64,000 nucleotides of DNA, from positions 26,160,808 to 26,224,807 of the forward strand of contig CM054062.1 of NCBI GenBank assembly GCA_028641055.1, read 5' to 3'. A program made the translations under genes and the position numbers. This document shows, one piece after another, positions 3,289 through 57,404 of the stretch; the stretch's first letter is position 1; each line of letters opens with the position of its first letter. The stretch comes from Alopecurus myosuroides (lineage: Eukaryota > Streptophyta > Magnoliopsida > Poales > Poaceae). Under the pieces are notes generated by a model, which was given only the letters and a program-made list of their open reading frames with translations, was not told where the DNA came from and searched no databases.

Positions 3289-3289
3289 A

Positions 3290-15225: not shown

Positions 15226-15227
15226 AA

Positions 15228-15240
15228 TGGTATCAGAGCC
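15228..15240 (+). other. Primer binding site (initiator tRNA-Met type)
   Basis: TGGTATCAGAGCC, 2 nt after the LTR end at 15225. Only about 45 bp of internal domain follow before the inverted LTR begins. Confidence 0.85.
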
Positions 15241-15284
15241 AGGTTTCGATCCTGGGACATGTGGGTTATGGGAGATTTCAGCAT

Positions 15285-30268: not shown

Positions 30269-30395
30269 CTCCCTCCGTTCCTAAATATAAGATGTTCTAG
30301 CTATTGTTCATGTTGACTAGGCACACACTAATATCTAGACAACTTTTAGTGAACATATGCACTAAAAGTTGTCTAGATACATATAAATATAGAGA
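30269..30395. mobile_element. Stowaway-like MITE, degraded
   Basis: TA followed by CTCCCTCCGTTCCTAAATAT is a Stowaway terminal sequence. An internal hairpin pairs CTAGACAACTTTTAGTG with its complement about 28 bp on. The matching GGAGGGAG end is missing, so the right border is approximate. Confidence 0.65.
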
Positions 30396-31544
30396 GAATT
30401 CCGTATTTGACCCTTTTTTAAAATCGTGTTCCCTATTTGGCCCTTAAAAAAAATTCTTACCTATTTGACACCTTAACTTTATTTTCTTCCTAACATGGCT
30501 CTATAGTGCATTCTAAACACAAATGGGGATGTAAAAAGACTTTTTTGCCCCTGATGATTTTTTATACCAAAATTCATAATAGAAGTTGAAAATAAGCATA
30601 GTACCAAAATAAGCATAGGAACCAAGCATAGCCATATCTACTGGGCCTCACCCCGATTGCGCTCCTCATCTTTGTGCTTAATAAATTTTTTTTGTCGCGT
30701 ACTAGTTCATGTTGCCCAACAATTAGTCTGGCTAATCTAAAAAAAACAATTAGTCTAGCAACCATAAAAAAAACCAGTCTAGCAACACTACAGAAAAGTC
30801 TAGCAACCCTAGAAAAAATACAATTAGTATAGCAACGGTAAAAAAGTCTGGCTGCACTTAAACTACAGATAAAAAACAAGGTCGTTATTGCCCCAATGGA
30901 GCCCGTCGGCGATGATTCTGCCGAGGCAATAAGAAATATGGTTTTGAGCCAGCCAGGAATGATTATGAGGAAGCACCTATTCCTTAAAGAAAGTACTCGT
31001 CACTATGACTAATGCTAGTCGTTGCATTTGTCTTATACTGCTTGACGGGGCTTCTTTGGCATAGTCGACTTTTGGTTGAGAACTCAAGCATTCATCGATC
31101 ATGTCGTTTGCAAAGCTCTGTCGAAAATAAGCATAGTACCAAAATTTATAATACAGGTTGAAAATAAACATAGTACCAAAATAAATATACAAGTTTTAGG
31201 ATGGTTGGCAAATTTAGGAACCGTTCAACAAAACTAATCCAATGGTGAAAAAATAAGAGGTACCAGAAAGTACTAAATAAAAGTACTGAATTATTTTATT
31301 TATTAAAATAAATTAATAATCACATGTGGCACTGATATTTTTTGAAAACCCTCTGCATGTGTTTCTCTGGTCGCCCTGAGCTTTCTTCATTTTCCCCAAA
31401 GTCCTTCAAATGTTCAAAGCCGCCGTCCGCCGGGCACCCTAGAGAAATATTTACCTGAGAATCGCTGAGGTGATGAACCAGTGCGAATCGGTCGCGCATG
31501 TGTGCAACTGAGAAGGTGAGCAGTGTGCGCGCGATGCGTGCACC
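30396..31544. repeat. Low-complexity region with short diverged repeats
   Basis: Contains about five diverged copies of GTCTAGCAAC between 30720 and 30860, and recurring copies of AAATAAGCATAGTACCAAAAT at about 30590, 31125 and 31160. Minus-strand openings of 101 and 71 aa arise from these repeats and are not called as genes. Confidence 0.5.
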
Positions 31545-31860
31545 GCCTATGCGGCCAGGGCTCTTTGTCGCGCACAGAGGTTGCCTTTTTTTTGCGACGG
31601 CTGCGACCAGTGTACCGCCGAGGAGGCTATGCTCTTCGCCGCACCGACGTTGCCCTTTCTTTGCGGCGGCTACGGCCCGTAAACCGCCGAGGCGGCCAGG
31701 CACTTTGCCGCACCGACGTTGCCCTCCTTTACGGCGGCTACGACCCATGGCTAGGCTGCGGCACTGACGCTGTCTTCCTTTGTGGCAGCTGCGACCAGTG
31801 CACCGCCGAGAGAGCCAGGCTCTTCTGCCGCGCCATCACAGCCTTTCTTTGCGCGGGCAC
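31545..31860. repeat. GC-rich minisatellite, 66-69 bp period
   Basis: About four and a half diverged units sharing GCACCGACGTTGCCCT, a TTTGCGGCGGCTACG block and CCGCCGAG. Because the period is near a multiple of three, overlapping frames stay open on both strands (minus 31320-31748; plus 31498-31987). The repetitive Ala/Arg/Gly translations argue against genes. Confidence 0.75.
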
Positions 31861-32249
31861 ACAGAGTCGTGCCACGCCCAGGTCTGGTTATTCGAGTTCT
31901 GCGATGGCGCCAGGTTCTGAACGTCGTGCGACGTGGCCAACCCACTCCTCGCCGGCACGAGTTACTTCCCATCGCGTCCTTGTTTAGCGTGCTCGCCAAC
32001 GCGTGCAAGCTCTTTATAGCGTTGGAAGAAGTCGTTGAAGTTGAAGTTCGTGTGCAGGCAATGGCTAATAAAGCTTATTCTCCAATTTCAACTAAACACC
32101 AGTACGTGCGGTGGTTTTTCACTCGGCCATGTCGTGAATGTTTGGTTAAGCAGACATAAGATCTCTGGCTGTACCAATTAAGAAGAAGAGAGGGAAAGCT
32201 GATCGAAAACCGACGCAACACGACGCGCCCCATCCTGCAACAAGCAGAG

Positions 32250-32546
32250 GGAAAGCTTGTTATAAGAGCTGCCACGATATGTTAAAAAATGTTCATCATT
32301 GTACCTAGGTTTTTCTCCACCAAAAATGTTCATCATTGTACAAAGCTTTTGCCTTGTTTCAAAAAAAAAAATATTTGGATAGTACTCCGTACATACGACA
32401 ATGACGCGGCAATTAGATCTGACTCGACCGTCATCACCCACGCCGTTACACGTGCGCGCTTCCCATCCGAATCCAGTTTACTTCCCTCACGTCTCCCCTC
32501 TCCTCTGCTCACCCTCCTGCATCCTCTGAGAGAAAAGAGAGAGAGG
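32250..32546 (+). promoter_or_regulatory. Probable promoter and 5' UTR of the glutaredoxin gene
   Basis: Upstream of the ATG at 32547 lie an ACACGTGC element (about 32449-32456, G-box core), a pyrimidine patch rich in CTCC (32485-32520) and GAGA repeats just before the start. No clear TATA box. Function is inferred from position and composition only. Confidence 0.4.
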
Positions 32547-35500
32547 ATGATGGCGGCGGCGTTGATGGCCGGAGCACTTCGGCGGGGGCGAGCAGGCGGC
32601 GCGCGATACGTGTTCGAGAAGACGCTGCGGAGGCTGGTGACTTCTAGATTGTATTGCTTGAAGCATTCATCTTGAATCATCATACCTTTGCAAATCTGAG
32701 TGTATTCTGCTGTTCCACTGGGAATAAGGAGAAACAGGACCACTTGTAGTCGGTGGCTACGTGTGCAAGAGTGTGGAGTCTCGAATATCCGAAGGGGTTA
32801 AGTGCTGTTGCAATTGGTAACAGGGTTTAGCCAAAGGAGAGAGCGAGGTATCACATTGGTTATCAATTTATCAAGAGAGTTCACTGAGAAGATCGGGCTA
32901 CCCCCCCAATTTCCTGTCAGGTTCATTGGGACCTCATAGGCCCTAGAATCCTCTTCTACAGTTATGTGAATTTGATGTTATGTTCATCTATCTTGTCATT
33001 CGAAGTAATGCCATGGCGATATTGTTTGACAAGAGCTATTGCAATTATCCTAGTTGCTACCTTTTTTCCATGAATGTCATGCTTGTAGTTGAGAATTCTG
33101 TGGCATTTTGAGCGCCATTGAGTTATTAGAAAATCCTCAAGTGTAAAGTAGCTCATTTTGGCATTTCCCTAGACCATTTGCTAGCACCTTTGAGTTTCAT
33201 AGTATGAATCTTCAGAGCTTTTCCCCAATATTACCCACTGGTTAGAGCTCAAATTGAACCCTAAAATCCCCAATTTCCTGTCAGGGTGTCAGGGTCGTCG
33301 GGGCCTGGTAGTCTCTAAAATCCTCTTCTACAGTCCTGGGAATTTATTGTTGTATTCATCTGTCTAGTCTTTGTAAGTGATAGGATTGTTTGATACAAGA
33401 GATCTGTATTATGCTAGCTAGCTGCCATTTTATCAAAAATGTCATTATTCTGTGATGTCTCAGTGCTGCCATTCAGTCTAATCTGAGAACTCTAATGTTT
33501 AGAGTTGGTCTCGTTTTGGTATTTGCCTTGCCATGACCATTTGTGCTACCTGTGTCGATTATCAGGCCATTATTGTATCTAAATGAATGTTATATGTGAT
33601 ATAGAGTTCCCTACCTAATGCTCTCCGTACAAAAATGCATTTTTATTTGAATAGGATTGTTTAGGCAACATTAAGAGGTTTTCCATGTTTTTTTTTTCGC
33701 TCAATGGTCTGATATCAGATTGAACCCTAGAATCCCCGAGTTGTTGTGAGGTTCATTGGGAGCTGGTAGGCTGTTATATTCATCTTTCTCATCTTTCTAA
33801 GATGAGATTGCTTGCTGTAGTTATCATGATTATCCTGGTTTGTACGCTCCAAGAATATCATGTCTGGAGTTGAGAATTTAGTTACGTTCCGTGCACCATT
33901 GATTTTTTTTTTCCGTAAATCCTTCTGTGTAGAGAGCTCATTTCGCCGTTTATATTATCTTAATGAATAGTCACTATAGTTTTCTCCCTAATTGTCTCCA
34001 ACAAATTTTATCTTAATGAATAGTTGCTATAGTTTTCTCTCTAATGGTCTCCAACAAATGTTTTGTATTTAAATAGGATGTTCAGGCAACCTGTTTAATG
34101 CTGTATGCTGTAAAAGAATGTGTTTAATGAGGTGCACCTGCACCAACAGGAGTGGTTTAGTGAGGCTGGAATCATCTCCTAACTCTGAACTGTATAATGT
34201 TTTAAACTGGTGGCTTGGTTTCATTTAAATGAAAAGGGGCTATGAGCCATTGGAATCCCTAGATGGTTGCAGGTTTAGTTACATCTTGGACCTGTGATGC
34301 TTTTATCACAGTTGAGGTTTTCTTGTCGATTTTCCCTGTTCACCCCTTCAGTTTTTCTGGGCATCTTGTCTTTTTACCCACGTTTTTGTGTTGTATAGAA
34401 GTGGCCAGCTTTATTTTGCTTCCAATTTATTGAAGAACCAACCAATGTTGAACTATCGGCTTTTGGGAAACAATCCAGATAATTTATGTTGTGATGTTGT
34501 CTCATGTTCGTATAATGACCTTATTTTGCATGTTAACTGAAAAGCAGGCTGTGTCACGACCAACTTTCCAACAGTTCATGACCTACTCATCAGCACCCAG
34601 TAACGTGGATGAGGGCACAAGTACAGCACGGGTAGCTGCTGATTCTGATACACATCAAGATTTCCAGCCTACAAGCAAAGGTTTTGACATGTCTTTGCAT
34701 GACATTGTTGCTCAGGTATTTACATGTAAAATTGGCATGTCACTAAAATTGTAAAGCTTTAAGTTGTTGTCATGTTCTTCTGCCATTTATTAACTGCCTC
34801 ATTGAAATTGTCGGATATATACCGAATAGGGGTATAGAAGATGGTAGACAAAAGAGCTGGATTACCAGGGTGGCCTGCAAGGTAATGGACTTAGGTCCAT
34901 TGGGCGGCCCAGTAGTCCGATGCGTAGAAGCCGGATTCTAGAAGAACCCGGATCACGGCCCGCGTGATCTGGCTTGGAGGAGAAGACGGATTCCTTACTT
35001 TCCAAGTTACAAGTTAAACGTAGTCTTCTAGGTTTCTGGTTCTGTAAGCCCTAATCCGGCTATTATATAAAGCCGGACGGGAGATAGATTTCATAAGTTT
35101 AATAAGTTCCTTTAGTCCAAGGTTCTAGGTTCTAGCTTAAGCCTTGCGCAACTCGCCGGGAAGTTCATCCTCGTCGAGTAGCTAGATCTATTCCCTTACA
35201 TTGTAACCTTATTATACGGGCTTTAGTCCCTCATAGTGAGAAGTGCAGGAGTAGGTACGCCGTACTGTCGCGACGTACCGAACCTGGGTAAATCCCGTGT
35301 TCTGTGTTTACTACGCTATCCCGTTACCCCACGTCTCTACCGTAGTCTCATGGCACCCCAGTCTATGAAAACTACTACGATGTCTCGACAGTTGGCGCCC
35401 ACCGTGGGGCAAACGACGTCAGGCGTGAAGTTCCGATCTGGGATTTTAGGCGGAATTGGAAGATCGATCACTGTCGGAAGCTTGGAATTCGACGACGACG

Positions 35501-38500
35501 TCGGGCGCTTCCTCGACAACGGATCCTACATACCGGCGCAAAACCACCTGGTAAGTGCCTGCGTTTTACCGATTGGATCTGCAAATATCTTTATCGGATT
35601 AACCGCGGAAGCAATGGGGTTTTGCGGTGAAAGCAATTATCTCCCACCCGCCCTATACCCAGTCGAAGACGACTATGATGCCGGATTTTGCTCAGATCGC
35701 CGACAAAACAGTGATACCCACTTTATCGGCATGGTGCAATCCGAGATCGCCGAAAACACGGATGACGGAAATCCCGTGCAAGAGGCAGACAACAATACAC
35801 CCGTCCCAGAGACGGAAGAACCAATACCCGTCACAGAGACGGAAGATCCGACATCTGTCAACCAGACGATGAACTCGGAAACAGAGTCCGTGCTTGCCGC
35901 CATTGAGGCGAGACTGGAGTCGGAAACAGGATCGGATAACTTTTCCGAAGACGAAGATGACGATGCCTTCGTACGAAAAGTTAAATCCTTTCAAGAGGGA
36001 TTCCATGAAGTGCTAATGGCAAAACCAGCCGATACAACGGGTGCCGATAGCCAGGAAAGCCCTAAAACCCCTCCGCCAGCAGAGGAGAGGGAAGACGGAG
36101 AAACTTCTCCGATATTTCCTAATGTCAAGGAGATGACAGAGGATGAACCTGTCAAAAAACCTCCCTCTTCCAAGAAAAAGCACCGTGCTTCTAAAAAACT
36201 CCAGTACAAACTCCGGAAGAAAAAGTCAGCTGATCTCGCTGATGAAAACCTGGAAGTTGGAGATGTTAGTGGCACAAAGCCTACGGAAAAGAAATCTAAG
36301 GAAATCACTGCTCCGCCAATGACAGAACTGGAAGAGCAGGAACTATTACAAACTCCAGTGGGACCCAATGAACCCCCTGAGATGCTGGAAGCCAGGAGAC
36401 AAGCTTTCCAACGGCAACAGCAACAACTGCTTAGATCTCGGCAACACCTCCAACAAACCCATAATGACATCAAAATTATGAAGGAGGAAATTGAGGAGTA
36501 CGAGAGAAAGCACAGATCTGTCTTAAAACCTACAAGGTTACCCGGAATTACAAAACCGGAAGAACTGCCGCCGAAAGAAAGGTTCTATAACCCATCTTGG
36601 CAAAAGCAGTTAAACGGCAAAGATGCTAAGGGCGAACCAATATACAAAACCGCAGCTGAAAATGCGGAAGCAGCGTTCGCCATCTTGAACAATGATCTGT
36701 ACTCCAACGGGGAAAAACTCCAAGGGGTGTATACCTTCCTAGGAAAAGCATTACAGCAGCAACAGCGAGGACAAGAGCGATCTGGGAGGCTGCATGATAA
36801 TTCCGCCCTCTGCAAAACTGTTACTTGCGCTGCTGGAGCACCTGGGCCGGAAGAACCCGGAGATTCGGATAAAAAAGAGGATCCGAGAAAAGACAAGAAA
36901 AACCCCGACAACCGGGACGCAGCGTCTAGAACCGGACCTCATCTCCCGAAAGATGGATATAAACCACACGATCGGGAAGACAAACACCGGAACGACGGCA
37001 AAATAATGCCACCTCCGAGAAACCCAGCTGAAAAAGCTGGAAGATACGATACACCTCACAGGCGTGAAAGATCTCGGACACCGCCCAAAGATAAGGAAAG
37101 ATACAGGAGCAGGACTCCACCTAATCCCAGAGGGCGTGACAACGGAAGAGACAGAGATAACCTCGGAAAAACGCGTCCGCGTAACAATGGGAAAGAAAGG
37201 AGTAGATCCCCTTCTGTCCATTCAGCCGGGAGATATTCTGCGCATATTGACAGAGCAGAAAAGGATGATCTATACTTTGGTCCTAAGTGTTTCACTGACA
37301 GGATCCGAAGGATAACCCTGCATTCTGGCTTTGCCAAAGTTGGTCCAACCTACCAAAAATATACCGGCAGTACAAACCCGGATACCTGGCTTTCAGATTA
37401 TTACACAGCCGTCCAGATCAACAACGGGACAGACCTGGAAGCTGTCAAGTTTCTTCCCCTAATGTTGCTAGACGGAGCCAGAGATTGGATTAATGGTTTA
37501 CCATCAAGAACTGTCGACAGTTGGGATGATATGGCGAGAGTATTTACTCAGCATTTTCGAGGAACGTACAAACGCCCAAATAGCATCAATCAGCTAAACC
37601 GTTGCACCCAATTTGAAGACGAACCATACGTGGATTTCATCTCCAGATGGACTGCAATGAAGAATAGTTGCTCTGGGGTAACTGACGTACAAGCAATGCA
37701 TGCTTTCGTCAATGGCCTAAAACCCGGACTTGTACCGTTCATGGTTGGCTCCAAAAAGCACAAAGATCTCGGATCTATGCTTACAACCGCTAATGAGCAT
37801 GCTGCAGCCGAAGACGATATCAGAGCAAGAGGAGGCAATATTGAGTCACTGATACTGGCCAAGAAAACACCTCGTTCTGATAAAAAAGGAACCCCGGAGT
37901 CAACAACAAAGCCCAAGGAGGTTAACTTAGCCTTTGGAGGAGAAAAAGGGAACAAGTGGAAAGGCCGCAGTCCGGATCCCATCAATTACACTCCTGAGGA
38001 ATGGGAGAGAATTAAGTCGGAACCCTGCGTCCACCACTCTCAATTTGGGAAGCCAACCCACACGAACGCGCAATGCCGGCTAAACAAGCATATGAAAGGC
38101 AATGCAGGATCCGGAAATAAAGGGAAGGGCTCCAAGAGGAAACCTGCCAAACAAAAGCCAGAAGCTGAAAAAGAAGACAGTGAATCGGACACTGATGATA
38201 AAATCCAGGAACAACAGCGAAAAGGCGAACCCAAATTTCCGAGAGTTGACGGAGAAGCAATGCTAACTTTCCTAGCAACCCCGTCAGCAAAGGTGGCCAA
38301 AAGGACACTTCGAGAAATAAACGCGGTTGTTCCTGCAACCCCAAAATTCTTGAAGTATTCCAACACACCGATAATCTGGGATCAGTCTGATCATCCCGGA
38401 AATATCCCTGAACCCGGCACACAAGCTCTTGTTGTAAGCCCTATTGTTCAAAACACTAGGCTAAGAAGAGTGCTGATGGACGGAGGATCCAGCATCAATA

Positions 38501-41500
38501 TAATGTACCTGGATACACTGAAGCACTTGAAGATATCCGAGTCCCAGCTCAATTACAGCAATATACGCTTCCATGGCATTGTCCCTGGCAGGCAAGCACG
38601 GTCCCTAGGAGAAATTTCCCTAGATGTCACCTTCGGAGATAAAGATCACTTCCGGCAGGAAAAAGTATCCTTCGAAGTTGTGCCGTTCGAGAGCGTGTAT
38701 CACGCAATACTCGGACGTCCGGCTTTCGCCAAGTTTATGGCAAGATCTTGCTATATCTACAACAAGCTGAAGATGCCAGGACCCAAAGGAGGAGTAATCA
38801 CCATTGCCGGTGATTTCAAGCTGGCAAACGAGTTGGAGAAGCAAAACGCCCTTTGCGCTCAAAGAGTTATAGCTCAGGAAGAATTAAAGGAGTTAGCCAA
38901 GGAGGTATCGCCGAAAGAAATGCCGGCAGGAAAAGAAACTCGGAAGCCAACAGATAGCTTCAAGGCATCCGAGAATACAAGACAGGTAATCTTAGACCCC
39001 AAAGATCCGACAAAATTCGTCGTTGTAGGGACTGGGATGACCGACAAATAGGAAGGCGAGCTCATCAAGTTCCTCCGTGAGAACTGGGACATTTTTGCTT
39101 GGTGTCCAGCTGACATGCCAGGCGTACCCAGGGAACTTGCTGAGCACCAACTCAAGGTTATTCCCGGATCAAAACCCGTCAAACAAGGTCTCCGTCGATT
39201 TGACGGAAGAAGACGGAAGGCTATTGGCAAGGAAATTATCCGGCTTTTAGCAGCGGATTTCATCAAGGAGGTAATCCATACTGACTGGTCCGCAAATCCG
39301 GTATTAGTACCGAAGAAAGACACAACTGCACTCAGAATGTGTATAGATTACACAGGATTGAACAAGTTATGTCCGAAAGATAGGTTTGCGCTGCCGCGAA
39401 TCGATCAAATAATAGATGCCACTGCAGGCTCTGAGCTTTTATGCTTTTTGGATGCATACTCCGGGTACCACCAAATACGCATGAAAAAGGAAGATCAAAT
39501 CAAGACTTCTTTTATAACCCCGTACGGGACGTATTACTACGTAACCATGCCTTTTGGCCTGAAGAACGCAGGTGCAACATACCAGCGTTGCATGCAACGT
39601 TGTTTGCATAGTCAGATTGGAAAAAACGTCCATGTTTACGTGGACGATATTGCTGTCGTAACCAAGGAAAAAGATACACTCCTTGAGGATTTGCGAGAAA
39701 CTTTCGAAAACTTGCGCACTTACAAGATGAAGTTGAATCCATCTAAGTGCGTATTCGGGGTTCCCTCAGGAAAACTTCTAGGTTTCATCGTTTCTCACAG
39801 AGGAATAGAAGTGAACCCGGAAAAGATCAAGGCAATCTTGAATATCTCAAAGCCTACATGTGTAAAAGATGTCCAAAGATTGACGGGTTCCGCTGCAGCC
39901 GTCAGCAGATTCATTAGTCGGCTGGGGGATAAAGCCTTGCCACTATACAAACTGTTAAAGAAATCCGACAAGTTTGAGTGGACAGAAGAGGCCGACGCAG
40001 CGTTAACCCAGTTAAAAGAAACCTTGATGAACGCCCCCATCTTGGCATCTCCCAAAGATGAAGAACCCATGTTGTTATACCTCACGGCTACTAGTCGGGT
40101 TATCAGTGCGGTAATCGTTGTGGAACGGGCAAAAGAAGAGCAAAGCATACCAGATCAACATCCGGTATACTACATAAGCGAAGTTTTTTCTGAATCCAAA
40201 CAAAGATACCCGCACTATCAGAAACTGGCATATGGCGTATTTTTCGCATCCAGAAAGCTGCGCCATTACTTCCAAGGACATTCCATAACAGTGGTATGTA
40301 AAGCACCACTAGGAGATATTATAAACAATGCGGAGGCAACCGGCCGAGTAGCTAAATGGGGCATCGAGCTGGCAGCCTTCGACATTAAGTATCAGCCAAG
40401 AACGGCAATAAAATCCCAGGTTTTGGCAGATTTCGTCGCCGACTGGACAGAAGCAATGGAAAATACACCGATGCCAGAGTCCGAGTACTGGATCATGCAC
40501 TTTGACGGATCTAAGATGAAAGAAGGAGCTGGAGCCGGCGTAGTCCTAAAATCTCCCAAGGGAGACACAATGGAGTACGTATTGCAAATACACTTCAACG
40601 CCAGTAATAATGTGGCAGAATACGAAGCTTTGCTTCATGGCTTGCATATTGCAAAAGAAATAGGGGTAAAGCGCATCTTGTGTTACGGAGACTCGGATTT
40701 GGTACAGCATCAGCTCAACCAAACCTGGGACGCGAAAAGCCCCATAATGGCCGAATATCGGAGAACGGTGGATGAGTTTGCCATCTGTTTCTTCGGGTTC
40801 GAAGTCCTTCACATAAAAAGGGAGGAAAACTGGAACGCGGATGCGTTAGCCCGCATGGGATCAGAGAGAGTAACAACTTTACCACCAGGGGTATTCGTCC
40901 AGCATTTGCACGAACCATCCATCAAAGGTGGAGACGTCGATTACCCTTTAGCATCTGAAACAATTGAAGTCATGTTCGTTAAACCGGATTGGACAATCCC
41001 GTACCTAAACTTCTTAGTCAATCAGAAGTACCCGGAAGGAGCAGATGAAGTCCTGCAAAGGCAAATACAACGTCGATGCAAAGGATATGTAGTAATCAAC
41101 GACCACTTATACAAACGCAGTGCTTCTGGAGTTTTTCTGCGGTGTATTTCACCAGAGGAAGGAAGAGAAATATTGCAAGAAATCCATGCCGGCGATTGCG
41201 GACATCATGCTCAATCAAAAAGCATAGTCAAAAAAGCATTCCGCGCAGGGTTTTTCTGGCTAACAGCCAAGACAGACGCCGAACGCATAGTAAATACATG
41301 CGAAGGATGTCAATATTATGCTAAGCAGACCAATTTGCCGGCCCAAGCATTAAAAACTATCCCTATCACTTGGCCGTTCGCGGTCTGGGGGCTAGACATG
41401 ATGGGACCGTTCAAAACTGCAAGAGGTGGACTTACACATCTACTTGTAGCAGTAGATAAGTACACAAAATGGGTGGAGGCTAAACCCATCAAAAAGCTGG

Positions 41501-44500
41501 ATGGCGTAACTGCCAGAAATTTCATTATTGATTTAGTAATGAGGTATGGCGTCCCACACAGCATAATAACTGATAACGGGACAAATTTCTCCATTGGGGA
41601 GTTGGCAAAATACTGCCAACAAACGGGAATTCGCTTGGATCTTGCATCTGTGGCGCACCCGCAATCTAATGGACAGGTTGAAAGAATGAACAGCTCAATC
41701 CTGCAAGGAATACGCCCAAGACTCGAAACTCCTCTTCATAGAGCAGCCGGAGCATGGGTAGAAGAACTACCTTCCGTGTTATGGAGTATTCGAACGACGC
41801 CAAACAGGTCAACCGAGCAAACCCCGTTCTTCCTAGTTTATGGTGCGGAAGCCATGCTCCCAACGGACATGATCCATGATAGTCCAAGAGTGCAAAATTT
41901 TGATGACTCAGATGCCGAAGAAGCACGACAGGATGCTGTCGATCTCCTAGAAGAGGAAAGAGAACTTGTGCTTCAAAGATCCGCCATCTACCAGCAAGGT
42001 TTACGACGTTATCATAGTCGGAAAATCAGGCATCGCTCTTTTAAAGAAGGCGACTTGGTGCTGAGATTGGTGCAGCAAAGAAAGCACAAATTGGCCCCAG
42101 TATGGGAAGGACCATTCGTCATCAGTAAAGCCATGAAGAATGGATCATATTATCTTGTCGACATTCGAGATACGGAGGATGATCCCAAAAAGCCGAATCG
42201 CAAAAGAAAGAGAAAAATAGATGCTGAACTAGGAGAGACAAATAGGCCTTGGAGTATCCAGCAATTACGTCCCTTCTACACTTAGTTCAATTTCTATGTA
42301 AACATCTTTGAGATCATGAAATAAAGTTATCGGAATTCATATTCATTATAAGTACAAAATATTTCCGCTTTTTCTATTTCCCAGTGATCTTACAAATACT
42401 CAATGTTGACCCGAATTGTGCCTGCGTGCTCGGTGTTTAAAAGCTGAATGATTCGACCTGTTAAAGGTTAAAGGAAACTCGGATTGTGCCTGCGTGCCCA
42501 AGTTTCAGAACAGTTCCTTATTTTCTCTAAGTCTTATCTGATCGTGCGTATGCTGGGTTACTGGAACTAGTTAGTAAAAATGCCTTTAGCATGATTCATG
42601 TTTTCGAGTTTCAAAACTGCTTGGTTCGTCCCCAGTTACTCGGCATAACGATTCATAGTGCTATTTGAGTCATTTCAAACACTAAGAACAGTTAAAGCAT
42701 GTATACCAGATTACTTAGAAGATAAAGGAGCAGCCAAACCCGGAAAAACTTTGCAAGAAGTTTGAAATCGCAAAAGGCGGAGTTCTTGTTTCGACAAATG
42801 ACATAGAAGTATTACAATATGAGTTACATTGTAAAAAAGCTACTATACGCATCCATCATCCAGGTTAAAGTGCGCCCCCTTTTAAATTTCTGAGTCTTCA
42901 TCACTGCCATCATTCTCGGGGGCTGCGGGCACCTCTTCTTCCGGATAAGTAATGGAGATATTTACCATGGAAGCAATCTGTGTGGCATGGCCTTCAACTT
43001 CTTTAAAGATTGCATTCATTTGTGCTTCTGAACATTCTTGAGGAATACCGGATGCTACTCGCCAGGATTTTGCATCAGGGTAGTGTAAGCGCATGAGGCC
43101 AAGTGCCATTCGCGCACCACCCCGTGCGGCAGAGCGAAGGAAAGATTCCTTCGAATTTGCTACTTCCATAATGCCATCCGGAAGTCGGTAAACTTCTGAG
43201 AATTGTATACTGCTGGTAGGCAGGAATTTATTAAGTAAATGCATCCCTGCATTTCTGATTGAATTCCATATCTTCCCAAAGGCCCGGATCTTTTCCGTCC
43301 GAGAAATCCCTGGAAAATTTCCTGCTTTTTGACAAAAGGCAAAGATTAGATAATATAAGAATATGACATGAAAGTATTGGTAAAAGAAGTCAACTTACCA
43401 AGAACCGCGTCAATTTCATCGCTTTCTTTCATACGAGGAAATAGCATACTTTCTAAATCATTGATAATGGATTTATCCTCTGCTGCCTGCAAAGAAGCCT
43501 TGGATTGCGCAATCCCAAGGGCTAGATTACTGGCTTCCAGTTCTTCTCGAACTTTTGAAAGTTCTCTTTGAAGGTTGGAGTTTTCTTCACGAAGTTGAGA
43601 AAAATAAGCAGCGTTCGCTGTAAGTTTCTTGGCTTTGGTTAAAGCAGCTGGAAAGCAGGGACAAAATAATCCGACATTACGGTAAGGTTTAGAAAAAACT
43701 TTCCAGCAAAAGTCAACAAACACGAAGAAAAATACCGGTGGCTTTGGATAATTGCTTTTGAGTCGACGCCAGTTCGTTGCTCTTTGACTCAATAGCAGAT
43801 TGAAGTGTTTTTACTTCTTTGCTTTTGAGGCTAAGTTTTTTCAAAACTTCCACGTTTATGGCATCTGCGGAATGCTGAAACATGGAAATGAAAGCCAGAT
43901 GCTTAAGTTTGAACAAGCATACAAAGAATCATTAAGAGGAATTTAGATTTTCAACTTAATGCTTGGGGGCTAGAGGTATTACCTGGCTCATTTCTCGCAA
44001 ATCAGTTAAGGTCTCCTTGAATTCTCGGGCATATTCCATGAAAAGAATTCCTACGTGGTGAAGGCCATCGTGTATGACCTGCCGGGGCGAGAATGCGATA
44101 TTGTTGCGGATAACTAATCCATTTTGCGGCCAAGGGCGAACCAGAGGCGCAGGAGCAAAAAACTTCTTAGCTTCCGGACGAATATATCCGAGTTCGTCGA
44201 AAAGTTCTTCTTTCACTCGGATATCATCTGGAGCAGGAATGGATTCGTTTCTGACGGGTGATTGAAGATTTCCGCCCATCGGCATATTCGTTTTCCCCTT
44301 TTTTCATGCAGCTGCAGAAGGGAGTTCTTCTTTGATGGTAGTTTGCCTCTTGCGCTTTTGGGTGTTGTAAAACTCGGCGTACAATTGGCTGATTTCAGCA
44401 TCAGAAGCAAGATCATCTTCTCCAAGTTCGTCAAACTAGGAAAGAATCAGCAGTATGTTAAAGATAAAGAGAGAAGATAATCTGAGGAAACTCAGAAACA

Positions 44501-47500
44501 AGGGAAGAGAAGTACCTTAGGAACCAGATTTTCCGCATGATATATGGCTAGACTCTCTTCAACCTGGCTATTAGCGGCAACTATCTGATGAAGGCGTTCG
44601 ACAAAATCCTTCTTGCTAAAGGATCTATCAGTGCCTCTCATGCTATCTTCCGGTCCCGTGTACTCACAAAGAAGTCGGGAACGAAGGGATAAAGGTTGTA
44701 CGCGACGCCCAAACCAGCATAACACGATATCCTTCCAAACCAAAGGTGGTTGAGAAGAAGAAAGTTTGGCAATGCGACGCTTTATTTTCATCAGGCTTTC
44801 AGGCAAATCCTCTGTTATTTCAAGTGTCCAATTTTCATGAGGAATGGCAGCAGAATTAACGAAGGGAGGAAGTCCGGTTTCTTTGTTGGGGAACGGAATG
44901 TCTTGATGATAAAAGAAAGAACCTAGCCAAGATTGGTCAGGTTTCGGCATTCTTATCCTGGGGTACCATTCTTCCCTAAAGTTTCTAAGGATAAAAGATA
45001 TGGTACCGCAGATGGGTGAGACACCGTTTGTGATATTGTGTTTTACCTCGAAACAATAATGCCAGAAGTCTAAATTGGGAGTTATTCCAAGATACCCTTC
45101 GAAAAGAGCTTGGAAACTAGCTAATTGGAGGATGGAATTTGGAGAGATATTGTGGGGTTGGACACCATAGAAATTGAGGACGTCTAGGAAAAAGGCGGAA
45201 GGAGGGAAACCCATACCTCTCGTGATATGAGAAGTGAGGAGGACGCGTTCACCTTCCTTTAGCTTGGGCTCTGGCTCATTCTTCGAGATCCGCCATTTGC
45301 CTTTAACTATTAAACCGTCCCTTGACATCCGACGAAGGAGGACGAGTGAAGTATCACTCTGATTCCAAATTCCGACAAATTCTGCTTCTTCGTCAGATCC
45401 GGCGGAGAAGCGCTCAGTGCCACGAGAGTGAGTCTTGACCTCCGCCGTTTCCCGTGTGAACGGCGGGGATGTTGTCGTGCTTGGACCCGCTACGTCCGCG
45501 GCGGCGAAAGCGTTTCCCCCGCCCGCCGCGGATGCCGTGGTTCTTTCCGGCCCGCCGCCGGCATGCTTGGGCGACCCCAGCTGTGGATCCAGGTCGCCCA
45601 AAGGCTCGTTGATGGAGGCACGGGCCGGTGAGGACGACGGAGAGGCCATCGTTTTCGGCGGTGACGGAGCGCTCCGGCGTGCAAAGGGCTCGTCGGGGTA
45701 AGGATTCGTTCTAAGCTCTCGTGCTCGCGTTTGCGTCAATGGCGTGGGCAGAAGGAGTGAGGAAAGATTTTCGGAGAGGAAGGAGACGGCTATTTATAGC
45801 CTGAAAACCCTCTAGATACGCGCCAACGGCTCTTTTGACCGTTGGATGTTTGACGCGTGTCGCTCGCCGGAAAATCCGGGAAACGGAACGACAGAGGAAT
45901 GATGGCTATCTCCTCGTTTCTCGTGAGAATCTGTCAGAGATACGTTGCAGGGTTTCCCGCGTGAAACCAAGCGGCGATTGCGTCAGCATGATTAAAGCGC
46001 TGATGTCACGTGTTTCTTTTCCGCGAAGGATCGCGAGAAGAAAAGCCGGATTTTCATAGTTCCGAGTTTTATGTTACCATCTCCTTTGAAAGGAAAGAAG
46101 AAAGAATCAAGACTGCTGAATCAAGTTTCCCGGGCAAAATGTATTTGACGAAAGGCGGAGTTTCAGAGTTTTGATCCTTCCTGGGGGCTACTGTCGGATA
46201 TATACCGAATAGGGGTATAGAAGATGGTAGACAAAAGAGCTGGATTACCAGGGTGGCCTGCAAGGTAATGGACTTAGGTCCATTGGGCGGTCCAGTAGTC
46301 CGACGCGTAGAAGCCGGATTCTAGAAGAACCCGGATCACGGCCCGCGTGATCTGGCTTGGAGGAGAAGACGGATTCCTTACTTTCCAAGTTACAAGTTAA
46401 ACGTAGTCTTCTAGGTTTCTGGTTCTGTAAGCCCTAATCCGGCTATTATATAAAGCCGGACGGGAGATAGATTTCATAAGTTTAATAAGTTCCTTTAGTC
46501 CAAGGTTCTAGGTTCTAGCTTAAGCCTTGCGCAACTCGCCGGGAAGTTCATCCTCGTCGAGTAGCTAGATCTATTCCCTTACATTGTAACCTTATTATAC
46601 GGGCTTTAGTCCCTCATAGTGAGAAGTGCAGGAGTAGGTACGCCGTACTGTCGCGACGTACCGAACCTGGGTAAATCCCGTGTTCTGTGTTTACTACGCT
46701 ATCCCGTTACCCCACGTCTCTACCGTAGTCTCATGGCACCCCAGTCTATGAAAACTACTACGATGTCTCGACAGAAATCTTTGACAGGATATCAAGAATA
46801 ATCCAGTCTTGATCTACATGAAGGGTTATCCTGATGCTCCCAGGTGTGGATTCAGTGCACTGGCAGTTAAGGTCCTCCAGCAATATGGTAAACCATATGT
46901 CAGTACCATCTGTCAGTTCATTGTATCTCTGGAAATCCCTAAATCATATACTGTCCATTGCAGGTGTCTCTATCAGTGCTAGAGATATTCTCAGTAATAT
47001 GAAGCTCAAGGAAAGTGTCAAAGCTCACACGTAAGTTGGTCGTCAGAACATCTCGGATGAAAGATATACTTTTAGTTGGAAGAAAACTGCCTCAAAAAGG
47101 GAAAAGGAACTATGTATGTGTGTGGTATATACTTGATTCTTATATGCTAAATAAAATGCTATGTTCTAATAAGGGGTAAATTTATCTTCCACAAATGACA
47201 AACCGACAGGAAATGAGTTTGATTAGGTTTGAGGCTTTACTTAAAAGGCATTCATAAAAAATGTCTGTGCCCTGTATCATCCAACGCACTGTATAGCTAG
47301 CTATGATGCCAGCCCTTACGAATTATTTATCAATTTTCAGTATTATTACTTAAATCTACTGTTTGTCTGTGCAGTAATTGGCCTACATTTCCCCAAATAT
47401 TTATCAAAGGAGAGTTCGTCGGGGGATCTGATATCATATTAAACATGCACCAGGCAAGTGAACTGATCATCGCATTCAGCTGAAAGACTGTTATCTTTCA

Positions 47501-47601
47501 CTATGTGGCTGACTTCTCTCGAATTTCTTCAGAAAGGTGAACTCAAGGATCTTCTCGGTGATATTAATGCACAAAAGGGGGAGCAGGACAGCGTCCCATG
47601 A
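32547..47601 (+). CDS. GRXS15: Mitochondrial CGFS monothiol glutaredoxin (GRXS15-like), six exons, intron 2 carries a retrotransposon
   Basis: Exons: 32547-32636, 34548-34715, 46788-46887, 46964-47030, 47375-47453 and 47533-47601. Phases agree throughout and give 190 residues. The Arg/Ala-rich first 30 residues resemble a mitochondrial transit peptide. The glutaredoxin fold follows from about residue 78, with the monothiol active site CGFS (Cys106) preceded by conserved Lys98, then WPTFPQIF with the cis-Pro and a glutathione-binding GGSD. Plant homologues bind a [2Fe-2S] cluster and glutathione in mitochondria and serve iron-sulfur protein maturation. Introns are GT-AG except the last (GC donor at 47454). 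Intron 2 would be 102 bp but holds an 11,965-bp Tat element ending 14 bp before exon 3. The coding frame is otherwise intact. Whether normal mRNA is made is unknown. An exon-1 start two codons later is equally possible. Confidence 0.93.
32890..33955 (+). repeat. Diverged triplication within glutaredoxin intron 1
   Basis: Three related blocks begin with CCCAATTTCCTGTCAGG or a diverged form at about 32901, 33267 and 33733. Each continues with ...CCTCTTCTACAGT...TTCATCT... and a later GTTGAGAAT/GAGCTCATTT-type stretch. Copies differ by many substitutions and indels, so the duplication is old. Confidence 0.6.
33955..34062 (+). repeat. 53-bp tandem duplication in intron 1
   Basis: Two adjacent copies of a unit starting ATCTTAATGAATAGT and ending GTCTCCAACAAAT, differing at about four positions. 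Confidence 0.85.
34809..35390 (+). repeat. 5' LTR of the Tat element
   Basis: 582 bp, TG...CA. It contains a TATATAA promoter box at 35064-35070 and three in-frame ATGs near its 3' end (35350, 35365, 35380) that lead into gag. Confidence 0.97.
35064..35070 (+). promoter_or_regulatory. TATA box of the Tat LTR
   Basis: TATATAA in a GGCTAT...AGCCGG context. The identical site occurs in the 3' LTR at 46447-46453, from which transcription could read into glutaredoxin exon 3. Confidence 0.65.
35350..39051 (+). CDS. Tat-element gag-protease
   Basis: The frame runs from ATGs inside the 5' LTR (35350, 35365 or 35380) straight through the primer binding site to TAG at 39049-39051, up to 1233 residues. 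The N-terminal third is acidic, then Lys-rich with a Gln/Arg coiled coil (about 36370-36500). Next comes an Arg/Asp/Pro-rich stretch (36870-37230). The gag domain spans about 37300-37830 ([24 protein letters not shown]), and a protease with DGGSS in place of DTGAS lies near 38477. The stop separates it from pol, which continues in the same frame. The product would assemble capsids. The true start is uncertain, since a shorter gag could begin downstream of the LTR. Confidence 0.88.
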   Translation: MAPQSMKTTTMSRQLAPTVGQTTSGVKFRSGILGGIGRSITVGSLEFDDDVGRFLDNGSYIPAQNHLVSACVLPIGSANIFIGLTAEAMGFCGESNYLPPALYPVEDDYDAGFCSDRRQNSDTHFIGMVQSEIAENTDDGNPVQEADNNTPVPETEEPIPVTETEDPTSVNQTMNSETESVLAAIEARLESETGSDNFSEDEDDDAFVRKVKSFQEGFHEVLMAKPADTTGADSQESPKTPPPAEEREDGETSPIFPNVKEMTEDEPVKKPPSSKKKHRASKKLQYKLRKKKSADLADENLEVGDVSGTKPTEKKSKEITAPPMTELEEQELLQTPVGPNEPPEMLEARRQAFQRQQQQLLRSRQHLQQTHNDIKIMKEEIEEYERKHRSVLKPTRLPGITKPEELPPKERFYNPSWQKQLNGKDAKGEPIYKTAAENAEAAFAILNNDLYSNGEKLQGVYTFLGKALQQQQRGQERSGRLHDNSALCKTVTCAAGAPGPEEPGDSDKKEDPRKDKKNPDNRDAASRTGPHLPKDGYKPHDREDKHRNDGKIMPPPRNPAEKAGRYDTPHRRERSRTPPKDKERYRSRTPPNPRGRDNGRDRDNLGKTRPRNNGKERSRSPSVHSAGRYSAHIDRAEKDDLYFGPKCFTDRIRRITLHSGFAKVGPTYQKYTGSTNPDTWLSDYYTAVQINNGTDLEAVKFLPLMLLDGARDWINGLPSRTVDSWDDMARVFTQHFRGTYKRPNSINQLNRCTQFEDEPYVDFISRWTAMKNSCSGVTDVQAMHAFVNGLKPGLVPFMVGSKKHKDLGSMLTTANEHAAAEDDIRARGGNIESLILAKKTPRSDKKGTPESTTKPKEVNLAFGGEKGNKWKGRSPDPINYTPEEWERIKSEPCVHHSQFGKPTHTNAQCRLNKHMKGNAGSGNKGKGSKRKPAKQKPEAEKEDSESDTDDKIQEQQRKGEPKFPRVDGEAMLTFLATPSAKVAKRTLREINAVVPATPKFLKYSNTPIIWDQSDHPGNIPEPGTQALVVSPIVQNTRLRRVLMDGGSSINIMYLDTLKHLKISESQLNYSNIRFHGIVPGRQARSLGEISLDVTFGDKDHFRQEKVSFEVVPFESVYHAILGRPAFAKFMARSCYIYNKLKMPGPKGGVITIAGDFKLANELEKQNALCAQRVIAQEELKELAKEVSPKEMPAGKETRKPTDSFKASENTRQVILDPKDPTKFVVVGTGMTDK
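35393..35410 (+). other. Primer binding site of the Tat element
   Basis: TGGCGCCCACCGTGGGGC, 2 nt after the LTR, typical of Tat-type elements and unlike the tRNA-Met sites of the chromodomain elements here. The tRNA is not identified. Confidence 0.8.
39052..42285 (+). CDS. Tat-element pol: reverse transcriptase, two RNases H, integrase
   Basis: In frame with gag-pro after a single TAG; the first ATG is at 39115. Domains in order: reverse transcriptase (YVDD near 39640), its RNase H (about 40000-40440), and a second, archaeal-type RNase H (about 40490-40860, [24 protein letters not shown] and [10 protein letters not shown]). Integrase follows with an HHCC finger (about 41190-41330), catalytic Asp in GLDMMGPF and TDNGTNF and Glu in NGQVERMN. 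It ends with a WEGPF motif and the [14 protein letters not shown] tail. No chromodomain. The frame is unbroken, so an active enzyme set is plausible. Translation needs readthrough of the TAG, initiation within pol, or a spliced message. Confidence 0.93.
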   Translation, partial: EGELIKFLRENWDIFAWCPADMPGVPRELAEHQLKVIPGSKPVKQGLRRFDGRRRKAIGKEIIRLLAADFIKEVIHTDWSANPVLVPKKDTTALRMCIDYTGLNKLCPKDRFALPRIDQIIDATAGSELLCFLDAYSGYHQIRMKKEDQIKTSFITPYGTYYYVTMPFGLKNAGATYQRCMQRCLHSQIGKNVHVYVDDIAVVTKEKDTLLEDLRETFENLRTYKMKLNPSKCVFGVPSGKLLGFIVSHRGIEVNPEKIKAILNISKPTCVKDVQRLTGSAAAVSRFISRLGDKALPLYKLLKKSDKFEWTEEADAALTQLKETLMNAPILASPKDEEPMLLYLTATSRVISAVIVVERAKEEQSIPDQHPVYYISEVFSESKQRYPHYQKLAYGVFFASRKLRHYFQGHSITVVCKAPLGDIINNAEATGRVAKWGIELAAFDIKYQPRTAIKSQVLADFVADWTEAMENTPMPESEYWIMHFDGSKMKEGAGAGVVLKSPKGDTMEYVLQIHFNASNNVAEYEALLHGLHIAKEIGVKRILCYGDSDLVQHQLNQTWDAKSPIMAEYRRTVDEFAICFFGFEVLHIKREENWNADALARMGSERVTTLPPGVFVQHLHEPSIKGGDVDYPLASETIEVMFVKPDWTIPYLNFLVNQKYPEGADEVLQRQIQRRCKGYVVINDHLYKRSASGVFLRCISPEEGREILQEIHAGDCGHHAQSKSIVKKAFRAGFFWLTAKTDAERIVNTCEGCQYYAKQTNLPAQALKTIPITWPFAVWGLDMMGPFKTARGGLTHLLVAVDKYTKWVEAKPIKKLDGVTARNFIIDLVMRYGVPHSIITDNGTNFSIGELAKYCQQTGIRLDLASVAHPQSNGQVERMNSSILQGIRPRLETPLHRAAGAWVEELPSVLWSIRTTPNRSTEQTPFFLVYGAEAMLPTDMIHDSPRVQNFDDSDAEEARQDAVDLLEEERELVLQRSAIYQQGLRRYHSRKIRHRSFKEGDLVLRLVQQRKHKLAPVWEGPFVISKAMKNGSYYLVDIRDTEDDPKKPNRKRKRKIDAELGETNRPWSIQQLRPFYT
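42286..42881. other. Spacer between pol and the antisense gene
   Basis: Non-coding. It contains two copies of ATTGTGCCTGCGTGC (about 42416 and 42485). It includes the end region of both the sense pol and the convergent antisense gene. Confidence 0.5.
42882..45739 (-). CDS. Spliced antisense gene of the Tat element (aORF), one in-frame stop
   Basis: Minus-strand exons: 45739-44516, 44435-43983, 43874-43736, 43647-43399 and 43321-42882. All four introns (77-108 bp) are GT-AG and phases agree, giving about 834 codons. Exon 1 encodes a Pro/Ser/Ala-rich N-terminus, then a globular part ([39 protein letters not shown]) like the plant transposon proteins grouped as Transposase_28. Exons 3-4 encode a coiled coil ([19 protein letters not shown]). 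Exon 5 has an acidic C-terminus. An in-frame TGA at 44306-44304 in exon 2 truncates this copy unless it is avoided by another splice. Antisense genes between pol and 3' LTR are known from Tat elements; their function is unknown. Confidence 0.78.
46176..46191 (+). other. Polypurine tract of the Tat element
   Basis: GATCCTTCCTGGGGGCTAC leads into the 3' LTR at 46192. TGGGGGCTAC before the LTR is usual for this lineage. Confidence 0.75.
46192..46773 (+). repeat. 3' LTR of the Tat element
   Basis: 582 bp, two differences from the 5' LTR. Its last bases ...CGACA followed by the G of the target duplication create an AG 13 nt upstream of the true intron acceptor. Confidence 0.97.
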
Positions 47602-49088
47602 AACAAGCCCACAGAATGTTAGCGTTAGCATGGACATGGATGCTTTCTTTCCGAGTATTCATAATCGGATGATCTTCGTGTGACGCTCTGTTGTTTCTAT
47701 GCAGCTTTTGATGTGGATTTCATTCTCCTGTTGCCAGCCATGATGGAAATCCCCCGGTTTCAAGAGCATCCAAGCTTTGTCTCATGATAAATAAATGCCA
47801 CTTCTCGGAGATGTCTGTTTTATTTATTTATTTTTGTACGTTGTCACGTCTAGTCAGGTGTTTTTGGTTGGATTCTACTCTGGGCTTGCTTAAGTTGCAA
47901 TAATAAATTGTTCGGTTGTTTGCATACTTTACATATATGCTACTGTTCTATCCGCCTGTTAATTTTATTTTTGGGCCCATCCTAAAGTTAAAAGTTTGTG
48001 GAGATGACCTGTCTGAATTCATAACTTAACTGTGTGTCCGCGTTGCACATCCTGGAAAGATGTTTGTATGAACTTGTGTTATAGACCTACCCAAGTTGGG
48101 GACAAATAGTGACATCTCCATGAGAGCAAATTTTGCGCACCTGCTTTGAAATTATTGTTATAACAGACCTGTTTAAATTTTTAAAAATCCTAGAAATTTG
48201 TGGCTGCATATTTTTTTTTTATGTTATATCAAAGTTTGATCTGAATATATATATATAGTGTGTGTTCTTCCAGGAAAAAAATGGACTGCCAATGTACTTC
48301 ATTTTGTTGTTGTGGAGCTTGGATGAAATTTTATGTTCGGAATTCATCACATAATGAGAAAACCCAACCGGCAGCATATGTGCTTATCTGTCCTGGTACA
48401 TCCTACCACTTGGTTATTTCTTCCGTTCAACAAATGAACTAGAGTTCCATCAGCCGTGCAAAGAGAAAACTAGAGTTCCCCTAGAAATCTTGTTACCAGA
48501 TGCACACGCAGTGGCATGTTAAGATAATAACAGAATAAAAAGTCCCTTTGCTTGCTTAATATATTGATCTTTCCTTTCAAAAAAAAAAACTTGTTACCTG
48601 CAGTACATGAGGATCTGCGAGTATTCTTCTATCCAAAATGATGGCAACATCTGTCAGTATTATATATGTACTCCCCTATGTCCGATAATATAAGATATTA
48701 TTACAACCAATATAGGACTATTCATCAAACATGGTGTTCTAATTTACCACCCAAGGCCTCAGTGCTGTTTTGGTTGGTGCCTAAGGCAAAACATCGCAAG
48801 TGAAATAATCAGCTCCGAAGAAAAAAGACAAACGAAATTGAAAGAAAAATATCATTAATAAAACCAAACTGATCACAATACCTCTCCGACTTTAGATGGA
48901 AACACAGACCAAATTATGGAAATCTCAACAGTACAAGATTCAGCGAGGCATGTCTGCGTATGAAACGCCAAAGCTAAGACATGACCGTATACCCAAACCC
49001 CTAGTTGGCTACCCAACCATTTATCACTCCAAAACCACAGGTACTTATTATTTAGACGCCGCTACACCGAACCTTTCTCGTGGCATAA
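47602..49088. other. Intergenic region between convergent genes
   Basis: Holds the glutaredoxin 3' UTR (AATAAA-like sites near 47788 and 47902) and the thioesterase 3' UTR (AATAATAAG on the minus strand near 49046-49054). A Stowaway-like fragment begins at 48671 (TA then CTCCCCTATGTCCG) with no matching end. No other gene seen. Confidence 0.6.
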
Positions 49089-54704: not shown

Positions 54705-54840
54705 AGCTACAACATTGAACCAACAGATAGTACCAACACAATCAAATAAATATATTGTTTGAATTCCAAAAATGGATACATAGTTCCAATCCATCAAAAA
54801 GTACAACAAAAAGTATAAATTACAAAAAATAACACCATAA

Positions 54841-57300: not shown

Positions 57301-57404
57301 GTTTGGAAGCTACCCCCACAGAAGAATAAAGTTCAGTTTGGAAGCTACCCCCACAGAAGAATAAAGTTCAGTTTGGAAGCTACCTCCACAGAAGAATAAA
57401 GTTC
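57301..57404. repeat. Three tandem 35-bp repeats
   Basis: Units start GTTTGGAAGCTACC at 57301, 57336 and 57371; the third differs by one base. Located in the non-coding part of the Harbinger element. Confidence 0.95.

What the first reader, a model, noticed from the sequence alone, without database searches (positions are those of the whole stretch)
34715..46788. Very recent 12-kb Tat retrotransposon inserted 9 bp from the acceptor of glutaredoxin intron 2
The target duplication GAAAT (46774-46778) is followed by only CTTTGACAG before exon 3. The original intron would be about 102 bp. The insertion separates donor, and probably the branch point and pyrimidine tract, from the acceptor by 12 kb. 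LTRs differ at 2 of 582 sites; with the commonly used grass rate of 1.3e-8 per site per year this gives roughly 0.13 million years. The host coding frame is intact, so this may be a natural hypomorph or a gene tolerating a huge intron. Plant GRXS15 is reported to be essential in Arabidopsis, so the effect would be meaningful.
Basis: partly seen in the sequence, partly recalled or inferred. Interest (0 to 1): 0.87.

Follow-up and report, generated by a model that had tools for sequence, protein, structure and literature searches.

The report
Young retrotransposon inside a hybrid gene
In a grass, a 12-kb jumping element landed very recently just before an exon of a mitochondrial glutaredoxin gene, and that gene already looks like a hybrid whose first exon comes from an unrelated mitochondrial gene, so it may be a spare copy rather than the plant's essential one.

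Summary
A complete Tat-type LTR retrotransposon (34809-46773, 11,965 bp; LTRs differing at 2 of 582 sites; target duplication GAAAT) sits in the sense direction in a glutaredoxin intron, 9 bp before the exon 3 acceptor. The insertion displaced the likely branch-point region. It also made a new AG, from the LTR's final A and the G of the duplication, 13 nt before the real acceptor; using it would shift the frame. Exons 2-6 are intact and 96% identical in protein to Alopecurus aequalis. New here: the conserved first exon of grass GRXS4/GRXS15 was not detected in the window. The only first exon found (32547-32636), with its 5' leader, matches electron-transfer-flavoprotein alpha (ETFA), in frame. 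The locus is therefore probably an exon-shuffled chimera (in A. aequalis the parents lie on different large contigs), and an intact GRXS15 may exist elsewhere. The 'hypomorph of an essential gene' reading is only partly supported. I favour a young, mostly mis-spliced allele of a secondary chimeric copy; RNA and the plant's own genome could not be examined. This is a new member of known kinds; the chimera is the more interesting part.

The parts
32389..32546 (+). 5' leader homologous to the ETF-alpha gene (overlaps the upstream reading of P0121)
   Evidence: Frame-tolerant DNA-protein alignment of P0121 residues 19-108 to 32389-32645, score 182 against at most 39.3 in 20 shuffles; tblastn
32547..32636 (+). 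Putative exon 1, 30 codons, homologous to ETF-alpha exon 1; ends phase 0 before donor GTGACT
   Evidence: score 101.4 against at most 27.5 in 60 shuffles
32637..34547 (+). Intron 1 (1,911 nt); conserved GRX exon 1 not detected here or upstream; ends in NAGNAG acceptor AAGCAG
32763..32865 (+). Doubtful: possible decayed ETF-alpha second exon
   Evidence: P0122 residues 38-69, score 33.2; reached by 0 of 60 base shuffles and 6 of 400 dinucleotide shuffles, but not robust to the length of the query
34548..34715 (+). Glutaredoxin exon 2
   Evidence: tblastn with P0001/P0002
34716..34808 (+). 5' remnant of intron 2, with likely old branch point TTAAC, ending in TSD GAAAT (34804-34808)
34809..35390 (+). 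5' LTR
35391..39051 (+). Leader with PBS-like TGGCGCCCACCG, then gag-protease ORF (as listed it opens at 35236, inside the LTR); in-frame TAG at 39049-39051
   Evidence: PF03732; stop; protease by motif only (recalled)
39115..42285 (+). pol ORF: RT, RNase H, second (archaeal-type) RNase H, integrase
   Evidence: PF00078, PF17919, PF17917, PF13456, PF17921, PF00665
44492..45739 (-). Antisense extra ORF with Transposase_28
   Evidence: PF04195, E 8.9e-18
46192..46773 (+). 3' LTR; its last A plus the TSD G make a new AG acceptor candidate (46773-46774)
46774..46787 (+). TSD copy GAAAT and the surviving 3' end of intron 2, CTTTGACAG
46788..46887 (+). Glutaredoxin exon 3, with the CGFS active site
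46964..47030 (+). Glutaredoxin exon 4
47375..47453 (+). Glutaredoxin exon 5 (followed by a GC donor)
47533..47601 (+). Glutaredoxin exon 6 with stop TGA

Best explanation
In a Poeae-type grass, the 5' leader and presequence-coding first exon of the ETF-alpha gene have come to lie in front of exons 2-6 of the mitochondrial CGFS glutaredoxin gene (GRXS4/GRXS15 type), giving a phase-compatible chimeric gene that is probably a secondary copy (DNA arrangement shown; chimeric transcript and copy status inferred). Within about the last half million years a Tat/Retand-like retrotransposon inserted in sense 9 bp before the intron 2 acceptor (shown; date by LTR divergence). The insertion moved the likely native branch-point region 12 kb upstream, left a U-poor LTR tail with few branch-point-like sites, and created a competing AG 13 nt upstream (sequence shown; effect inferred). 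Most transcripts should therefore end early at the 5' LTR or use an LTR-side AG and shift frame. The three aberrant reading frames modelled all lack the CGFS site, with at best a minority of correct splicing. I expect a weak or null allele of a dispensable chimeric copy.
For: Element, TSD and LTRs. Acceptor geometry: YTNAY sites at 28, 24, 16 and 3 nt upstream within 60 nt in the empty intron against 54 and 3 nt now; U in the last 40 nt falls from 40% to 25%; AG created at 46773-46774; the +13 product ends after 8 altered residues; intron read-through and exon 3 skipping also end without the CGFS site. ETFA exon: 2 proteins at E<=1 among 24 candidates when residues 1-40 are searched; the one with domains is ETF-alpha by Pfam, from Alopecurus aequalis; scores far above shuffles. 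The 23-residue canonical exon 1 scores at shuffle level upstream. In A. aequalis the two proteins come from different contigs (432,403,959 and 521,103,429 bases). None of the 120 glutaredoxins held (the 120 listed of 536 hits) carries the ETFA-like exon; best such match E 0.50 over 13 residues.
Against: No RNA data, so splicing may work: soybean FT2a with an intronic SORE-1 is spliced though transcribed less (PMC4719747, abstract and one section), and IBM2/EDM2 are reported to enhance splicing of heterochromatic introns (PMC4417168, abstract and passages). YTNAY matching is crude; about one match per 60 nt is expected by chance (my arithmetic). Exons 2-6 change no faster than the Alopecurus gene (2 against 2 assignable changes in 160 residues, 2 ambiguous), so the copy may be functional or the chimera very young. 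A decayed ETFA second exon at 32763-32865 is not excluded; then the ETFA piece would be a longer dead fragment. The canonical exon 1 could lie beyond the window's left edge. The plant's own genome was never reachable.
Confidence: 0.57

Rival explanations
1. The chimera is the plant's working GRXS15: ETFA supplies promoter and presequence, and the 12-kb intron is spliced adequately with a branch point in the LTR tail, aided by heterochromatin-intron factors. The insertion is a mild or neutral polymorphism.
For: Phase 0 on both sides of the exon 1-2 junction and an intact 190-codon frame; no acceleration of exons 2-6; intronic TEs in other plants can be spliced out (PMC4719747, PMC4417168).
Against: Weak acceptor surroundings and competing upstream AGs; donor GTGACT lacks the +5 G; the window presequence has a low helical moment, 0.34, reached by 1671 of 2000 shuffles, against 0.52 (294 of 2000) and 0.56 (343 of 2000) for the two parents, none of them significant; an age under 0.5 My gives little time for selection to test the insertion.
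Confidence: 0.17
2. The locus is the ordinary GRXS15 gene; its conserved first exon lies more than 34 kb upstream beyond the window, because retrotransposons expanded intron 1, and the ETFA fragment is an unrelated piece inside that intron. The first reader's essential-gene reading would then stand.
For: The region 1-25 kb holds gypsy pol and gag-protease ORFs and large repeats; exons 2-6 and intron 3 are orthologous to relatives; a possible decayed ETFA exon 2 next to exon 1 would fit a dead fragment.
Against: It needs an intron over 34 kb and a chance sense, phase-0 ETFA first exon with its leader 1.9 kb upstream of exon 2; the 23-residue exon was not found in the 34.5 kb upstream.
Confidence: 0.17
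3. The host gene is a dead pseudogene, in decay before the insertion.
For: Canonical exon 1 not detected; donor GTGACT; F76 replaces a Ser kept in 18 of 19 aligned relatives.
Against: No stop or frameshift in 573 nt, CGFS and the domain intact, and no excess of window-specific protein changes.
Confidence: 0.08

Closest known systems
Retand clade of Tat (OTA, non-chromovirus) Ty3/gypsy elements, including RIRE2 and Cinful (PMC6317226, passages)
   Same: Second RNase H between RH and INT, 5-bp TSD, antisense extra ORF with Transposase_28 (reported there in 23% of Retand elements), no chromodomain found
   Different: Nothing diagnostic; one in-frame TAG separates gag-pro from pol. No phylogeny was built.
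Soybean e9 allele of FT2a with SORE-1 in intron 1 (PMC4719747, abstract and one section)
   Same: LTR element inside an intron, coding sequence unchanged, expected weak allele
   Different: There splicing was not markedly disturbed and the effect is transcriptional; here the insertion is 9 bp from the acceptor and changes its surroundings.
Maize waxy alleles with intronic retrotransposons (recalled, not looked up)
   Same: Plant intronic LTR elements that alter splicing
   Different: Position relative to the acceptor and host gene
Heterochromatic-intron genes handled by IBM2/ASI1/EDM2 (PMC4417168 abstract and passages; PMC11265718 passages)
   Same: Gene with a TE in an intron that must be transcribed through and spliced
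   Different: Methylation state, and presence and action of these factors in this plant, unknown
Exon-shuffled mitochondrial presequences in plants, such as rice rps11, rps14-sdhB, maize cytochrome c1 (recalled, not looked up)
   Same: A presequence exon borrowed from another nuclear gene for a mitochondrial protein
   Different: Here it stands in for an existing presequence exon of an already nuclear gene

Membership tests
Tat/Retand LTR retrotransposon | LTR pair with TG...CA ends and 5-bp TSD | tested here: met
Tat/Retand LTR retrotransposon | Second RNase H between RH and INT (PMC6317226) | tested here: met
   RT_RNaseH 316-422, RVT_3 463-581, Integrase_H2C2 680-735, rve 754-849 of the pol ORF
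Tat/Retand LTR retrotransposon | No chromodomain | tested here: met
   None at E<=0.01 in the six ORFs of the element that were scanned
Tat/Retand LTR retrotransposon | Antisense extra ORF with Transposase_28 (in part of Retand) | tested here: met
Tat/Retand LTR retrotransposon | Placement in the RT-RH-INT tree | not tested
   No reference set was aligned
GRXS15-type mitochondrial monothiol glutaredoxin | CGFS active site in a Grx4-type domain | tested here: met
   TIGR00365 122.8 bits over cut-off 117.1; PF00462; alignment
GRXS15-type mitochondrial monothiol glutaredoxin | Conserved first exon/presequence of grass orthologues (MARLVST...) | tested here: not met
   Not detected in 64 kb nor by the frame-tolerant search of 1-34547; present in 18 of 19 aligned relatives. 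It could lie outside the window.
GRXS15-type mitochondrial monothiol glutaredoxin | Import into mitochondria | not testable with these tools
   Only charge and helical moment computed; the moment is low
Exon-shuffled presequence chimera | First exon homologous to another mitochondrial gene, compatible phase | tested here: met
   (that ETF-alpha is mitochondrial is recalled)
Exon-shuffled presequence chimera | Spliced chimeric mRNA | not testable with these tools
   No RNA data
IBM2-type heterochromatic intron gene | Methylated TE intron and full-length transcript | not testable with these tools
   No methylation or RNA data

The most novel reading that the evidence does not exclude
The ETFA-GRXS15 chimera is a functional, selected gene that places Fe-S/lipoyl supply under the promoter of a respiratory catabolic gene, and the Tat LTR tail now acts as a ready-made branch-point and acceptor region. 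Choice between the LTR-made AG and the native AG 13 nt apart would then set GRXS15 dose, as a natural epiallelic switch that depends on silencing of the element.
Probability: 0.08. Interest if true: 0.75.

Novelty: new member of a known kind. Interest (0 to 1): 0.42.

Why it matters
If spliced, it is a clean natural test of whether plants can use an acceptor whose branch-point region was replaced at one stroke by an LTR tail, and the chimera would be a recent example of one mitochondrial presequence exon replacing another. If not spliced, it is an ordinary case of a young retrotransposon ending a spare gene copy, and a warning that an intact-looking frame can hide a foreign first exon.

Tried and rejected
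Pseudogene by stops in exons 5-6: my first splice model had a wrong exon 5 end and gave stops; the GC donor at 47454 gives the boundary and the frame, matching relatives.

ETFA exon 2 directly after exon 1 (processed, intron-less copy): it aligned with four frameshifts. In the anchored test 14 of 1000 shuffles of the downstream sequence reached the score, 51 of 1000 when the first GTG was kept, and 37 of 774 GTG sites of the window did too. I take this as no support.

Neither shown nor excluded; for it I lowered the best explanation from 0.60 to 0.57 and raised the second rival from 0.15 to 0.17.

Transposon capture of the chimera: no match, in either orientation, between the flanks 28000-34547 and 46775-54000 at E<=0.1. 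Helitron ends were not tested.

The P0002 N-terminal 110 residues scored 52.8 at 11296-11461 (highest of 6 shuffles 39.8), above chance but over residues 15-70, not the MARL part, and far from the gene; not followed up.

A protein search with the gag-protease ORF returned nothing at E<=1e-50 among 7994 scored candidates; uninformative.

Promoter/terminator scan of 34800-35400: nothing, and the models are bacterial. Rfam (gathering threshold) and tRNA scans of the window: nothing.

Literature: three searches aimed at the chimera or shuffled presequences and one at LTR insertions near an acceptor listed no report of this locus; only listings were seen.
Full report
Check of the observation. A self-comparison of 34001-47500 (plus strand) gives one repeat pair, 583 bp at 99.7%. 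The element is 11,965 bp in the same direction as the gene. The intron is 12,072 nt, 102 nt without it.

The element. The gag ORF carries Retrotrans_gag; the pol ORF carries RT, RNase H, a second RNase H (RVT_3), the integrase zinc finger and core; an antisense ORF near the 3' LTR carries Transposase_28. Two RNase H domains are described as unique to Tat, the position between RH and INT as that of Ogre and Retand, and Transposase_28 as present in 23% of Retand elements (PMC6317226, passages only). So it is filed as Tat, Retand-like, without a tree. One in-frame TAG at 39049-39051 separates gag-pro from pol; whether this is natural recoding or a mutation was not tested.

The host gene. Exons 2-6 encode a CGFS glutaredoxin: TIGR00365 (Grx4 family monothiol glutaredoxin) above its cut-off, PF00462. 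Of 536 hits (120 listed) the best five are from Alopecurus aequalis (two), Lolium rigidum, Avena sativa and Puccinellia chinampoensis, so the plant is very probably a Poeae grass (tribal placement recalled). Several hits are named monothiol glutaredoxin-S4, mitochondrial; Arabidopsis GRXS15 is essential, null mutants being embryo-lethal (PMC8260144, passages). Over the 160 residues of exons 2-6, identity to Alopecurus is 154/160; 2 changes are private to the window, 2 to Alopecurus, 2 ambiguous; identical residues shared with five other grasses are nearly the same from either side (147 and 147, 145 and 147, 150 and 150, 136 and 136, 135 and 135). So there is no sign of relaxed constraint up to recently. 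Intron 3 can be compared with a Puccinellia protein whose sequence appears to run through it: at least 6 mismatches and 2 indel bases over 75 nt, cost 12 against at least 32 in 200 shuffles, which supports orthology at the DNA level.

The first exon. In 18 of 19 relatives in the alignment (chosen from the 120 listed) the protein holds M(A/K)R(L/S) followed by a presequence, at or near its start in most (the exception is the oil palm protein P0059). That exon was not detected in the window. Ungapped six-frame scanning of 64 kb with three forms of it gave, for the Alopecurus form, 32 at 44544 (inside the retrotransposon, with two stops) and then 29 at 32538, which is the ETFA-like exon itself; one shuffled window gave 29. 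The other two forms reached 29 and 26 and had no shuffle of their own. tblastn finds nothing credible. A frame-tolerant search of 1-34547, plus strand, gives 27.0 and 25.6 for the 23-residue exon of Alopecurus and Lolium, below the shuffle means of 27.8 and 28.2 (6 shuffles each), while the exon 2 control is found exactly. One longer query (110 residues with leader) scored 52.8 at 11296-11461, above six shuffles, but outside the presequence part.

The ATG that gives an open frame to exon 2 is at 32547. Searching residues 1-40 of the predicted protein returned two proteins at E<=1 among 24 candidates: P0122, an unnamed product of Alopecurus aequalis with ETF and ETF_alpha domains, and P0121, an unnamed short reading that seems to run through the same exon, its leader and the start of its intron. 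P0121 aligns to 32389-32645 at score 182 against at most 39.3 in 20 shuffles; P0122 residues 1-30 align without gaps to 32547-32636. tblastn finds no other ETFA exon (next best E 1.5). ETFA exon 2 is not convincingly fused to exon 1; a decayed exon 2 at 32763-32865 is borderline and depends on the query length. The ETFA-like exon and GRX exon 2 meet in phase 0. In A. aequalis the two proteins come from contigs of different length. None of the 120 glutaredoxins held has the ETFA-like exon. The simplest account is an exon-shuffled chimera. How it arose is unknown.

What the insertion does. In the empty intron, YTNAY sites within 60 nt lie 28, 24, 16 and 3 nt before the acceptor, TTAAC at 24 being the best by the recalled plant consensus. 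After insertion the only ones within 60 nt are at 54 and 3 nt; U in the last 40 nt falls from 40% to 25%. The LTR ends in CA, and the first base of the duplication is G, so a CAG arises 13 nt upstream of the native acceptor; other AGs lie 43 and 59 nt upstream. By first-AG choice (recalled principle) upstream AGs should compete strongly. Use of the +13 site, read-through into the intron, and exon 3 skipping all end the frame without the CGFS site. The sense 5' LTR could also end transcripts; in Arabidopsis silencing mutants, shorter transcripts polyadenylated near the 5' part of intronic TEs increase (PMC4417168, passages). Against this, soybean FT2a tolerates an intronic LTR element with little disturbance of splicing (PMC4719747, one section).

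Judgement. The element and its position are certain. The chimera is well supported as a DNA arrangement, untested as an mRNA. I hold it more likely than not that this is a secondary copy and the allele weak or null. The low helical moment of the chimeric presequence (the parents' values are not significant either) and the donor GTGACT speak mildly against full function; the unaccelerated coding sequence speaks for function until recently or for a young chimera. The own genome, sister species' DNA and RNA were all out of reach: the genome search did not complete.

Noticed in passing
39049-39051: Single in-frame TAG between the gag-protease ORF and the pol ORF of the Tat element; recoding or mutation not decided.
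   Followed up: partly
47454-47532: Intron 5 of the glutaredoxin gene begins with GC (CAG|GCAAGT), a GC-AG intron.
   Followed up: yes
34542-34547: NAGNAG acceptor (AAGCAG) before exon 2; Alopecurus proteins P0001 and P0002 differ at this junction by one Gln, as alternative use would give.
   Followed up: partly
32904-33445: Intron 1 holds old, diverged repeat units (70% identity between 32904-33080 and 33268-33445).
   Followed up: no
13183-17295: A 4.1-kb stretch that matches its own reverse complement at 93%, related to repeats at 3287-5417, 6108-10424, 20359-24698 and 59112-61918.
   Followed up: no
11296-11461: Frame-tolerant match to residues 15-70 of the long Alopecurus glutaredoxin model P0002 (score 52.8, highest of 6 shuffles 39.8).
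   Followed up: no
54366-55737: Minus-strand Myb/SANT-like and DDE_Tnp_4 ORFs side by side, as in PIF/Harbinger transposons (recalled).
   Followed up: no
30270-30400: MITE-like stretch with a 48-bp self-inverted match at 30332-30379, with CTCCCTCCGTTCC near its start (Stowaway-like by recall).
   Followed up: no
57300-57404: Three copies of a 35-bp unit, 98% matches.
   Followed up: no
1345-3090: Chromodomain-bearing Ty3/gypsy pol fragment (integrase plus Chromo).
   Followed up: no
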